The notes under the pieces are model-generated. The model worked only from the letters and a program-made list of their open reading frames with translations. It had not been told where the DNA came from and made no database searches. Shown piece after piece: positions 11,794 through 63,755 of a DNA stretch of 64,000 bases. Origin of the DNA: Eudromia elegans (taxonomy: Eukaryota; Chordata; Aves; Tinamiformes; Tinamidae); assembly GCA_003342815.1 (NCBI GenBank), contig PTEX01000024.1:4663517-4727516 (forward strand), given 5' to 3'. Positions within the stretch are counted from its first letter, which is position 1, and every line of letters begins with the position of its first letter. The translations under genes were made by a program, and so were the position numbers.

Positions 11794-11851
11794 TTTTCTA
11801 CTGGGCATAATGCAAGTACTCATTTTCTACTGGGCATAATGCAAGTACTCA
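11794..11851. repeat. Exact 29-bp tandem duplication
   Basis: Two identical 29-bp copies lie head to tail (11,794-11,822 and 11,823-11,851), each starting TTTTCTACTGGGCATAATGC. Perfect identity implies a recent duplication. It lies just downstream of a T run, and the unit itself is not low-complexity. Confidence 0.95.
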
Positions 11852-13240
11852 TTGAAAAATGGCGAAAAGCAAAAAGTATCAGATTTTCTGTAGCGCACAG
11901 AATGAATCAGGTGTGTTGGCAAGGTGGGGGGGAAAAAAAGCCTTTGTAACCTGCCATAGGTCTATTCTAGATTTTCTGCATAGTATTGATCTGTTACAGT
12001 TGTTGTGTTACTACACTAAAATTGGGTCTTTTGCTTAATAGTCAGAAGAGGAACACATGAGACTCGAAAGTACCTTCCAGTAGCTGATGTGGTGCATTTA
12101 GTAAGATGCTTTTAGTAAGATGCTTTTCAGCCTAGTAAGATAGCTGGTACCTACTCCTGCTTCCTGTGGCTGCCCATCAACCCCTTCCTCTCATGTACAG
12201 GTATATTTCTGAGGGGTATAAACATCAGATTATATCTTTGGGTCACTGCAGAGGACCTTTTGGGGGGTTGTTTTGACTGCATTGGGCTTTGTCTTATAGA
12301 TCAGGATTTTACAGTCTTGTATAATTCTTACTAGCAATGTCAAAAGAATTTTGTTCAGAGCCAGTAAACACATCTCTTGTCTTGCAGTACTGTATCACGT
12401 GTGACCCAAATGTGTTTATACCAAGGGAGAATGTCAGGAAAATTACAAGAAAACCTGTACCATTTCACCCCCACCAATCTGGAAGAAAGCAGTAGGAGCA
12501 TTTTTTTATTTAATTGCTGACATTTTTCTATCCATTTTTGCAAAAATAGTCTGTGTTCCACTGCAATATTATGAGGAACTTGGCACTTTGCTGGCTCCGG
12601 TTCCCACTTCAGATCTTCAGCCTTGTCTGGCATACCTTTATCTCAGCATGCACGATGTGTTTCTCTGCATTGTGCACTCATGTGTACTTGAGAGAAATAG
12701 GTTTTTCTTGATAAAATTTCGTGCTGTGGTCCAGTCAAAAAAATAGCACTGATACTATGTGCTGAGCAAGCCACAGTGTTTTCAGGATTCTCATTTTGGG
12801 AGAGCAAGTGTGGTGTTATTAGCCAGAAACACGTGGAGGGCAGTGGGTGAGGAGCCACACCAGCACTTGGTTGATGGCCTGGAAGAACAGTTTAGCTTAA
12901 ATTTGCCCTTAAGTCCTTCTTTTTCCAAGATGCTTTTCCTAACTCCTCACCTGCAACTGAAATGTTGAAGAAGTTACTGTGTCTTGGGGAAAACTTTGAT
13001 GGACTGCGCTGAGATTTATTACCATTAAAATGTGCTCCCGGTGCCTGTGCCGTTCTTCCCTGTTTTCTTTGGAAACACTTTTTCTGTTGGAGGTCTAAGT
13101 GCTGGAGTCAGTAGCAATTTACTGCTATTTGCAAATGCAAATTGGGCTGCAACTTGGTTTTACGCTGGCAGCCAGGAAAACAACACACTTGTCACTAAGG
13201 GATTCAGACAGCTTTTGGTTTCTATAATGACTGTTAATTT
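11852..13240. other. Gene-free AT-rich region
   Basis: Nothing coding is supported. A 14-bp direct duplication (TAGTAAGATGCTTT type) lies at 12,099-12,126, with a third partial TAGTAAGAT shortly after. Frames up to 92 codons show no recognisable motif. Confidence 0.65.
12099..12126. repeat. 14-bp tandem duplication
   Basis: Two adjacent copies of a 14-base word containing TAGTAAGATGCTTT, followed by a partial third copy (TAGTAAGATAG) near 12,133. A small local duplication. Confidence 0.8.
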
Positions 13241-60129: not shown

Positions 60130-63100
60130 GTTTAGGAAAAGGAAGATTTATGAATTCGATTTGTCATTGCAGTCTGCATAGCCCAGAAATGTGAGATGAA
60201 TGCAAGTATTGGCAAGGATTTATGACAGGCATTGGTTTTAATCTATGTTCTTGCTGTGATTAAGTATCTAGTGAAGATCAGGGTTAAAGTTTTGGAAAAG
60301 TAGCAAGCATTAAATTATTGAGTCCCTTCCTGCGCTGCGTTCTGTGTAACCTCACTATTTAAGTTGGGTACGAGTGACTGCAAGGGCTGCAAGTTGGATA
60401 CTGGTCAGAAGAAGTCTAACCCTAGCACAGAGCAGCTTGCACCTAGGGGAGGGTTGCAGCTAAAGGTGTAAGAATATACATATGTGCATTGCATTTATGT
60501 TTCATTGAGCAAGAGTCAGGAATGAGCAGGGCACACAGCAGGGACAAAAGGCTGATGTGTAATGTTGGTGCATTAACCAGCTGAGGCTGCAGGTACGTTT
60601 AGGATTGTTGTTAGAGCTAACACTGCAGGAGCAGCTGGGCTGAAGCTGCATGCTCAAAGATGAGGGAACTGGAGAGGATCCTATAATGCTGGCAGAGAGG
60701 GCTGAGTCTTGGTCCAGCTCCCAGTATCATGGGTGCAGTACCGGCTGCCGTTACAGCTCGGTTCGGAGTAAAAGGCTGTGATTAAGGTTGGTGTTTGGTG
60801 AGGAGTCGGTTATGAATTGTTTGCAATACTGCATTGTGTATGGACTGGAAATGTAAGAGAAGCTGTTAGCAGTAGGAATGATTGCTATTTCTTTTTTTCC
60901 TTCAAAGCACAGAACCATATATCATTTACAGGAGATTTTCAGATCTTTTGTCAAGCAAAATGAATGGCTGGTATGTCTTCCTCTGCCTTGATCACACAGA
61001 CGCGGTTAAATGTTTAGCTAAGGTTGGGATTAGGGTCCAGATTTGTGAGAGGAGGGAAAGTATTTACGGTTTAGGCTTTCCTTTTTTTCTTGGAAAATCA
61101 AGAATTAGCTCAATAATTGCTACTAGTCACCTGGAAGTGACAAGGAATGGGTCACCTGTGTTTTTGGAGCCTTGGAAATGCAGGATTAACTGCAAGTCTC
61201 ATTGGGAACGAGTGCCTGATGCTTAGTATTATGCTTAGTGTTTGGCTAACTAATAGTCCCTTAGTTGCACGTAGGCTAGGTTTAGGGAAAGTCTGGGGAA
61301 TCGAACATTTCCAAGTTGAATTTATTTCTGTATTCTCTTGGGCAGAGAAATTCAGGATGAGTCTCCAATCATCCTATATGTATGATATTTGAGTTGATAT
61401 CATCCTCTCTGTAGGTTTTGGGCCTCTGTGCTGGGTTAAGGATTAAGAATTACGGTTAGAGTTAGGAATTTGGAAAAATAAATACTTCTGAGTTAGGCTG
61501 AATGCTGCATTGTACACGGAGCAGAACTGTGGGGTAAGCGAGCTTGTCAGCAGTGATGCATGACAAGTGTTTGTGTTTCTTCTGGATTCTGCTCTACTGG
61601 ATGTTATTAAGGCTAGTGATGGGATTAGAGAGAAGAGAAAGAAGAATTTGTGAATCAGATTTATTGCTGCAGTTTGCTGGGCTTCAGAATCTGGTATAAA
61701 TGTGCATATCAGTGTGGATGAATAGGTGATGTTTGGTTTTCATCAAGGACAATTCATCTGGATTCAGATGAGGGAAGTGGTTAGAGTTTGAATAAGAATT
61801 TCAGAATTAGGCTTTTTGCAGCGTTCTGCAAATCCCCTGAATCTTGGATGAGGGCTGATGTCAGCAGGGAGAAGTGGCTTATGTTTATTTTTAATCTAGA
61901 TTGTCGCTTATAGTGATGGCTAGGGTTAGTTCAGGCTAGTTGGAGTAAGTGAAACATTTATATGCTGATGCTGTAAGGGCAGGTTAGTTCTGTGTAACTG
62001 ATATTGTCAGCAAAGATGAACAATAAATGACTGTTTTGGGGGGGTGGTTTATACTGTGGTTCTCTGTAGGGAGGGTCAGGCTAATGAAAGGATTAAGATT
62101 TAGGGGGAAAGATTCTTTCTCACTGAGATTTGTTGCAGCAGCCTTCTGGATCCACATGTTAAAATTTGGCATAGGGTCTGAGGTTTTGGTGTGATGCAGG
62201 ATTGCAGTTACAGCAACAACTAGGGTTATTGACAGGGTAGGATTCTGGAAGGGAAAAGTCAAGTTTATTTGTGATTCCTGTAAAACTGAGAGATCCGAGT
62301 GTGAGAGCTGGCAAGAATTATTGTAACGGCAGCTACCCGGGGTAAGCTTAATGCCACGGTTGGAGGTTACAGACTGGAGGCAGGCAGAGCTCTTCAGAGA
62401 GCTTGGCTTATTGGTTGGTTTTGGAAGTGTCAGTGGAGTAAGTGCAGGCAATGTGGCTCCAGGCATTTCTTGGTGATTTTTAGGGCCCAACCAAATAGGA
62501 ACATGAAGATTTTTATTTCTCCATACGGGAGAAATCAACCCTCCCCTCTATGAGAGTTGAGTTGTTGAAGGCAAGACAGGAGCTTTTTGCATCATCCTGC
62601 AAGTGTCCATGAATTACTAAGCTCCTATTAAATCATCTCTGCTCTGAGTGTTGATCTGAAATCAGTCCTCCTTTGAAACCGTATTCAAATTATAGGTTAT
62701 GAAGGGACGAGAATCCTGGAAACCCAAGAGGTAGGATTCTGGCAATAGTCTGCAAAGCTGAACACATCATAGCTTGCAGATTCACATCTGAAGTTCTGCT
62801 CCTAGTTATCTTTATTTTCTTTGTTTTAACTGGAGAAGAGATAGTCTCTTGCAGTTGATGTATTTCAATAAGTATAAAGGTAGATTTAGGACAGGGTCTA
62901 AGGGTGGGGGAGCATTTGAGTTAGGTTTTTAGCTGTATTCCACAGTTCTCCAATCCAAGATCTAAGCCAGTTTGAGGGGAGGCAAATGACACCAAAATTA
63001 TTTGCTTTAGTGTTTGTATTGCTCACCTAGACATAGTGAGAGCTGGTGTAAGGATTCAGGTAGAGTAGGATTTTTGGTACACATATTTCTAGGTCTTATT

Positions 63101-63620
63101 GGTAGATCTTGCAGTTTGCTGAGGGCTGATATGAGTCAGGTTGGCCAGGGTCAACAGCTACCTGACTTCAGTGTGAGTGTAGCTCAGCTACCAAAACATA
63201 AGCACAGCTGGAATTAAGATTCCAGATTAACTGGAATGTTTGAGTGTAGGTGATTGTTGTGTTCTGCATAGTCTGAAAATAGACAAGAGGAATGGTTGAT
63301 ATGCAGCTCTGGTCCATATTTAATTTTGGTGGACGTCATCTATGTGACCTTAAGGCTAAATCAGAGTTTAGTTTGGGTTAGAAGATGTGAAAGGAAGGCT
63401 TTCCAGTCACAGTATCCTGCTGCGTTCTGCATGGCCAGCATCCTGGGGGGGGGTGTGCAAGTGTCAATAGGGAGGATAGTGTAAACCCTAACTTTGGGTT
63501 TGAGTAAAAGTGAAAATATGGTTAGGGTTGCACAGATGATTAGATTTTAAGGAAGGAAAAATAAGGGATCTTTATTTATTGATAGATTTTCCAGATCCCA
63601 AAAAGTCAGAGAACAGTTTT
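60130..63620 (+). repeat. Diverged tandem array, about 160-bp unit
   Basis: About 22 head-to-tail, heavily diverged units. Each carries a GCAG/CTGC-type core: near 60,167, 60,335, 60,486, 60,645, 60,829, 60,984, 61,185, 61,330, 61,505, 61,663, 61,815, 61,965, 62,132, 62,275, 62,445, 62,587, 62,746, 62,935, 63,110, 63,262, 63,420 and 63,590. Spacing is mostly 145-180 bases. The clearest pair is 60,142-60,190 and 61,641-61,690 (GAAGATTTATGAATTCGATT versus GAAGAATTTGTGAATCAGAT, then TTGCAGTCTGC versus CTGCAGTTTGC, then CAGAA in both). Units often begin with GGCTAGGGTTAG- or GATTAAG-like words. The minus strand stays open for 184 codons (61,984-62,538), a by-product of the repeated stop-poor sequence. 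Not recognised as a named satellite. Period and copy number are by-eye estimates. Confidence 0.72.
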
Positions 63621-63624
63621 GATA

Positions 63625-63632
63625 ATGCAAAT
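63625..63632 (+). promoter_or_regulatory. POU octamer motif
   Basis: Exact ATGCAAAT at 63,625-63,632, directly before a triplicated GTGCA...ATCTGCA word. Function unproven. Confidence 0.3.
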
Positions 63633-63650
63633 ACCTCACGTTCAATTTTG

Positions 63651-63755
63651 GTGCAGAAATCTGCATTGTTCATTTGAATTTTTTTGTGCAAAGATCTGCA
63701 CTCCACATTTAACCAAGTAAACTCTCTTCTTGTGTCAATATCTGCAGATGAAAAG
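63651..63755 (+). repeat. Triplicated GTGCA-n-ATCTGCA word
   Basis: GTGCAGAAATCTGCA (63,651), GTGCAAAGATCTGCA (63,686) and a weaker GTGTCAATATCTGCA (63,732). The first two copies also share a following ATTT. Spacing is 35 and 46 bases. A short diverged tandem element immediately right of the 160-bp array. Confidence 0.7.

What the first reader, a model, noticed from the sequence alone, without database searches (positions are those of the whole stretch)
60130..63620. Old, diverged tandem array of about 160-bp units
The right end of the window is built from roughly 22 head-to-tail units that share a core word and spacing but have diverged strongly. Ordinary single-copy DNA should not show the same GCAG/CTGC landmark every 145-180 bases for 3.5 kb. 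I do not recognise it as a named avian satellite. It could be a fossil satellite, a decayed centromere- or subtelomere-type repeat, or a lineage-specific minisatellite.
Basis: seen in the sequence. Interest (0 to 1): 0.75.

Follow-up and report, generated by a model that had tools for sequence, protein, structure and literature searches.

The report
Decayed satellite carrying telomere-like words
The right end of this window, probably from a bird, holds the worn remains of a satellite whose roughly 163-base units carried a stretch resembling chromosome-tip (telomere) sequence, and better-kept arrays built the same way lie elsewhere in the genome, two of them arranged head to head as joined chromosome ends would be.

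Summary
Window 60130-63620 is a very old head-to-tail array of about 163-bp units, all on +. A profile trained on one half recognises the other (z 7.0-9.9, 8 of 8 runs), also with telomere-like words masked at period 164 (z 10.1, 7.0). Fourteen units form block 1, four plus a fragment block 2; a gap of exactly three unit lengths between them is unreadable.

A second, worse-decayed locus of this module lies on contig C445.

Genome-wide, telomere-word pairs about 160 bp apart occur 358 times against 1 for the reversed pattern. Many belong to composite arrays, (TTAGGG)n plus a module of about 140 bp (families A and B). The window's module is not detectably homologous to either: it shares architecture only. 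Arrays at C92 (12+, 13-) and C158 (8+, 17-) switch strand once, head to head, as fused telomeres would.

Best reading: a fossil telomere-associated satellite, now inert. Chromosome-end origin is inferred, not shown.

The parts
60130..62374 (+). Block 1: 14 head-to-tail units of about 163 bp
   Evidence: 14 of the 18 unit matches of profile R1, 60134 to 62368 (these units were in its training set); half-against-half cross-validation of the whole array
62375..62901 (+). Room for three units, no recognisable sequence; probably decayed in place
   Evidence: Held out of R1 and not recovered (best 1.8 bits); start-to-start distance 653 = 4 x 163
62902..63548 (+). Block 2: four units
   Evidence: R1 matches 62902, 63075, 63229, 63389 (in its training set)
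63549..63658 (+). Possible terminal fragment of a unit
   Evidence: R1 match 63551-63658, 8.8 bits, E 0.18, not in the training set
61450..61467 (+). One of the clearest telomere-like words, TTACGGTTAGAGTTAGGA
   Evidence: Within 2 mismatches of (TTAGGG)n, offset 164 in its unit
61916..61930 (+). Telomere-like word ATGGCTAGGGTTAGT
   Evidence: Offset 129 in its unit
63516..63531 (+). Telomere-like word ATATGGTTAGGGTTGC
   Evidence: Offset 135 in its unit
61658..61678 (+). Core of a well-kept unit, GATTTATTGCTGCAGTTTGCT (consensus TTTATTGCTGCATTCTGCA)
   Evidence: Unit 61630-61794, 76% identical to the in-sample consensus; the best-kept 20-column stretches include this core

Best explanation
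A dead telomere-associated satellite. Its ancestral unit was a module of about 130 bp followed by a short run of telomere-type hexamers. Inferred: such a unit arose at or near a chromosome end and was multiplied and kept alike by unequal exchange, the telomere words offering pairing sites; it was later carried into a chromosome arm by rearrangement or fusion. Cut off from homogenisation it has decayed by point changes and indels, and probably does nothing today. Shown: the array, its single orientation, the telomere-like words, a second locus with the same module, and many better-kept arrays of the same architecture with other modules. Not shown: birth at a chromosome end, how it became interior, or common descent with the other families.
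For: Array real by shuffles, other blocks and cross-validation. 28 12-mers within two mismatches of (TTAGGG)2 on +, 6 on -; shuffles on + mean 2.4, maximum 10 of 200. 7 of 8 clusters at offset 129-164 of the unit. Profile fits the telomere hexamer best of 10 hexamer classes of that composition, 11.6 against 7.8. Second locus at C445 with core and telomere word in the same relation. Same architecture at many loci: 358 places against 1, families A and B. Head-to-head arrays at C92 and C158.
Against: The window module is not detectably homologous to A or B. Exact TTAGGG is not in excess: 5 against shuffle mean 2.0, maximum 5. With three mismatches allowed only 14 of 29 word clusters fall at offset 122-164. 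The window lies 4.7 Mb and 1.9 Mb from the ends of its contig. Family B at contig ends points outward in only 7 of 11 clusters, so a terminal position is not shown. Chicken centromere cores also contain (TTAGGG)n (PMC9974502, passages), so telomere words do not prove a chromosome-end origin. The profile fit is in-sample.
Confidence: 0.58

Rival explanations
1. The window module is a very decayed member of the same superfamily as modules A and B. All these arrays then descend from one telomere-composite satellite and the window holds its oldest readable relic.
For: Same unit length, same layout (telomere words, then a purine-rich start, then the module). Weak best scores to C92b and C158 (z up to 2.1, up to 2.4).
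Against: 9 of 9 comparisons at z -0.8 to 2.1 and 42 of 42 at -1.4 to 2.4, whereas A and B match each other at 6.8 to 10.3; no nhmmer match of A or B modules in the window or C445 at E up to 0.01.
Confidence: 0.25
2. A decayed centromeric or pericentromeric satellite that happened to include telomere-type words, never at a chromosome end.
For: Chicken centromere cores can contain (TTAGGG)n within 41-bp repeat arrays (PMC9974502, passages). Unit length is near that of one nucleosome. Family B breaks contigs, as large heterochromatic arrays do.
Against: No centromere mark could be tested; head-to-head A arrays suit chromosome ends better.
Confidence: 0.2
3. Telomere hexamers were inserted at a double-strand break and the insert with its flank was then tandemly multiplied in place (an interstitial telomeric sequence plus local amplification).
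For: Insertion of telomeric repeats at breaks is a described route (PMC7215372 and PMC8537989, listings with start of abstract).
Against: The same module occurs at a second locus, C445, and many other arrays repeat the architecture.
Confidence: 0.08
4. A tandem-repeat transcript or protein-binding array kept by selection for its cores.
For: Conservation along the unit is uneven (20-column means 0.50 to 0.65) and the + strand is G-rich (GC skew 0.29 and 0.22 against at most 0.17 elsewhere).
Against: No Rfam match in the window at gathering score; no Pfam match above its cut-off in the two array ORFs tested; the unevenness is modest and in-sample.
Confidence: 0.04

Closest known systems
Families A and B of this genome (names mine): composite satellites of (TTAGGG)n plus a module of about 140 bp
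   Same: Head-to-tail units of about 160-195 bp, telomere words once per unit on one strand
   Different: Other module sequence; A and B are far better kept
Interstitial telomeric sequences, including fusion-type (human 2q13) (PMC6410037, passages)
   Same: Telomere-type hexamers inside a chromosome arm; C92 and C158 have the head-to-head order
   Different: Here a few degenerate hexamers recur once per about 163 bp within a satellite; the window array does not switch strand
mTALT telomeres of telomerase-less mouse cells (PMC7889907, abstract and passages)
   Same: A unique subtelomeric segment multiplied in tandem in one orientation together with telomere repeats
   Different: Experimental, recent, at live telomeres; here interior and decayed, mechanism untested
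Muntjac fusion sites (PMC2760882, passages)
   Same: Satellite and telomere repeats together at old fusion points
   Different: There telomere blocks lie beside satellite I and no head-to-head order was met; here hexamers lie inside each unit
PO41 and CNM, 41-bp repeats of galliform birds (PMC4301066, passages; PMC9974502, passages)
   Same: Avian tandem repeats of chromosome ends or centromeres; 164 is 4 x 41
   Different: No 41-bp period inside the unit; sequences were not compared

Membership tests
Satellite DNA (general) | Head-to-tail array of a unit | tested here: met
Satellite DNA (general) | Same unit at more than one locus | tested here: met
   C445; one further locus only
Satellite DNA (general) | Units homogenised | tested here: not met
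   Pairwise identity 0.42, near the shuffle level; hence 'fossil'
Satellite DNA (general) | Match to a catalogued consensus (Repbase/Dfam) | not testable with these tools
   Neither library is available here
Telomere-associated satellite | Telomere-type words once per unit, one strand, constant phase | tested here: met
   28 against 6 between strands; 7 of 8 clusters in phase, but 14 of 29 at the looser threshold
Telomere-associated satellite | Lies at, or once lay at, a chromosome end | not testable with these tools
   Interior of a 6.67-Mb contig now; no orthologs or cytogenetics
Families A and B of this genome | Homologous non-telomeric module | tested here: not met
Interstitial telomeric sequence | Run of telomere hexamers, little else between | tested here: not met
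   About 130 bp of other sequence per unit
Fusion-type ITS | Head-to-head switch from TTAGGG to CCCTAA strand | tested here: not met
   All 19 window matches on +; met at C92 and C158
PO41 / CNM | 41-bp period | tested here: not met
   Lag 41 scores -64.0 against mean -62.8
TALT / ALT-type telomere | Composite units built at telomeres by recombination | not testable with these tools
   History not observable in one genome

The most novel reading that the evidence does not exclude
The window array, C445 and families A and B record several separate episodes in which chromosome ends of this lineage were rebuilt from composite units, a local unique module plus a few telomere hexamers, copied from end to end by recombination as in TALT-type survivors. 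Each episode left its own module. C92 and C158 would be scars where two such ends fused, and the window the oldest readable relic.
Probability: 0.1. Interest if true: 0.85.

Novelty: new variant of a known kind. Interest (0 to 1): 0.52.

Why it matters
If right, interior relics of telomere-composite satellites mark where old chromosome ends went and could help date fusions and rearrangements. The head-to-head arrays at C92 and C158 give two concrete places to test for fusion by synteny. It also shows that a satellite too decayed for Tandem Repeats Finder can be recognised with a cross-validated cyclic profile.

Tried and rejected
Tandem Repeats Finder at its lowest threshold misses the array; 7-mer autocorrelation is only suggestive. 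Long DNA queries of the genome returned only the query's own place, and the typed consensus only the window array; that search did not even find C445, so rarity is not proved. Core patterns with up to 3 mismatches gave 6 places against 0 for the reversed pattern, 4 against 0, one of them the window, 10 against 0, two of them already and one nearby the same core (three of the ten, C445, C27 and C469, were known), and for a 30-mer 1 against 0, C445. The 16 distinct places outside the window were all scanned with R1: only C445 has repeated units. L011, L061 and L062 gave single weak matches at the searched core; L061 and L062 were also read. The gap pattern gave 3 against 0: C445 and two that were not opened and are near the chance expectation.

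Outward orientation of family B was tested and did not hold: 7 of 11 clusters outward, 4 inward (positions; lengths). The 81 matches of R1 on A and B arrays lie nearly all in the telomere-like columns and are no evidence for a shared module. A coding origin: ten ORFs, two of them in the array, gave no Pfam match above its cut-off (two sub-threshold matches in the ORF at 60882). Most of the window was not scanned for genes, so whether the array lies in an intron is unknown. Rfam gave nothing at gathering score. The 41-bp idea was rejected on period; a half-unit peak at 83 in the same call (52) was not followed. Dating by divergence was dropped, because units may already have differed when homogenisation stopped. 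Direct insertion of C151 in family A rests on reading only: nhmmer found nothing there.

Literature: nine searches listed no paper that I recognised as describing a ~163-bp avian satellite with telomere words. I saw the listings, not the texts, and the library lacks most subscription papers.

Full report
What was checked. The window is contig C147:4663517-4727516 of a 944-Mb assembly in 723 contigs; the contig is 6,674,171 bases long. An avian source fits a repeat at L028:2640-2950 that I recall as the 3' end of a CR1 element (read; related copies at C445, none in the 124 kb around the window). The species is unknown. A cyclic profile HMM with re-estimation scores 658 on 60130-63620, against 385-428 for 12 dinucleotide shuffles and 358-442 for 12 other blocks of the window. 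Profiles trained on one half and applied to the other exceed all 40 shuffles in 8 of 8 runs. With telomere-like words masked this stands in both directions at period 164 (z 10.1, 7.0) and in one direction only at 160 and 168.

Anatomy. Profile R1, made from 18 units, finds those 18 and one fragment, all on +, and nothing else with E up to 10 in 124 kb of the contig. The 17 ordinary spacings are 145-179 bp, mean 162.6. There are 14 units at 60134-62368 and four at 62902-63548; between them lies the length of exactly three units without recognisable sequence. Unit-to-consensus identity is 49-76%, in-sample. Mean pairwise identity, 0.42, is barely above that of six shuffles trained the same way, 0.395-0.413: the array is very old or was never well homogenised.

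The telomere-like part. 12-mers within two mismatches of (TTAGGG)2 number 28 on + and 6 on -; 200 dinucleotide shuffles, which keep the G-richness, give a mean of 2.4 and a maximum of 10 on +. Exact TTAGGG, by contrast, is not in clear excess (5; shuffle mean 2.0, maximum 5). The 28 form 8 clusters, 7 of them at offset 129-164 of the unit and one at 50; allowing three mismatches gives 29 clusters, 14 of them at offset 122-164. Columns 137-168 of the profile fit the telomere hexamer better than the other nine hexamer classes of the same composition (11.6 against 7.8 for the next), and the unit's self-similarity is strongest at a 6-bp shift. So the ancestral unit was most likely a module of about 130 bp plus a few telomere-type hexamers.

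A second locus. A 23-base core pattern with up to 3 mismatches has 6 places in the genome against 0 for the reversed pattern. One, C445 near 90 kb, has further R1 matches on both strands, an independent alignment to the window array at C445:92904-93003 (E 8e-6; the best for reversed C445 is 0.91), and telomere-like words at the same distance from the core. It is more decayed and mixed in orientation.

The same architecture genome-wide. Two telomere words 138-168 bp apart occur 170 + 188 times, against 1 + 0 for the reversed pattern. Overlapping places count apart, plain telomere-like runs are included, and only the first places, up to contig C180, are listed, so what follows is partial. Modelling and reading show composite satellites. 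Family A: C9 (10 units), C16 (2), C36 (5), C77 (12), C92 (25), C158 (25), weakly C8 (2), and C151 by reading only, nhmmer finding nothing there; a single A-type core also lies near the right end of C65. Family B: C38 (3), C80 (8) and C109 (17) by nhmmer, and C209, C300, C325, C389, C435, C465 and C701 by a 34-base pattern alone, 41 places against 0, C38 and C80 included. In both a unit is a run of TTAGGG-type repeats plus about 140 bp. A and B are related (z 6.8 to 10.3 in four comparisons, 60 column permutations each; A with A 16.9 to 34.7). The window module is not detectably related to them: z -0.8 to 2.1 in 9 comparisons, -1.4 to 2.4 in 42, and no nhmmer match. It shares their architecture but fails that membership test; descent too old to see is not excluded.

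Head-to-head arrays. At C92 25 module matches fall into 12 on + followed by 13 on -, and at C158 25 into 8 on + followed by 17 on -, one switch each (close neighbours may be pieces of one unit). That is TTAGGG then CCCTAA, the order expected where two chromosome ends join; an inverted duplication would look the same. All 11 clusters of family B (10 contigs) lie within 21 kb of a contig end, but 7 point outward and 4 inward, so their place shows arrays large enough to break the assembly, not that they are telomeric.

How it most likely works. A satellite with telomere hexamers in each unit can pair and exchange with other ends or arrays that carry them, which would spread and homogenise it; once stranded in an arm it decays. 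The window array is at the far end of that path. This is inferred from anatomy. Comparable known cases are mTALT telomeres in mouse cells (PMC7889907: abstract and passages), muntjac fusion sites (PMC2760882: passages) and telomere repeats within centromeric arrays of chicken (PMC9974502: passages); none is the same thing.

Limits. One genome, no orthologs, no Repbase/Dfam. Genome searches used short patterns or DNA words, so other loci of the window module may be missed and family counts are lower bounds. The window's genes were not annotated.

Noticed in passing
L053 (C92:1505501-1510500) and L065+L056 (C158:6530001-6536500): Composite (TTAGGG)n + module arrays with one strand switch each (12+/13-, 8+/17-), in the head-to-head order of a telomere fusion.
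   Followed up: partly
Family B: L041, L052, L054 and places on C209, C300, C325, C389, C435, C465, C701: A better-kept telomere-composite satellite, all 11 clusters within 21 kb of a contig end, 7 pointing outward and 4 inward.
   Followed up: partly
L057 (C147:14501-17500): Near the left end of the window's own contig, a degenerate TTAGGG-rich stretch on + (912-1630) is followed by a GC-rich array with periods 56 and 111.
   Followed up: no
L042 (C65:1-1659): Telomere-like run at the very start of the contig (1-409, CCCTAA strand) followed by a tandem repeat of about 146-166 bp that looks unrelated.
   Followed up: no
window 61984-62547, strand -: A stop-free stretch of 187 codons inside the array; no Pfam match, probably chance on the C-rich strand.
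   Followed up: partly
window 11794-11853: Two perfect copies of a 29-bp unit, a young local duplication.
   Followed up: no
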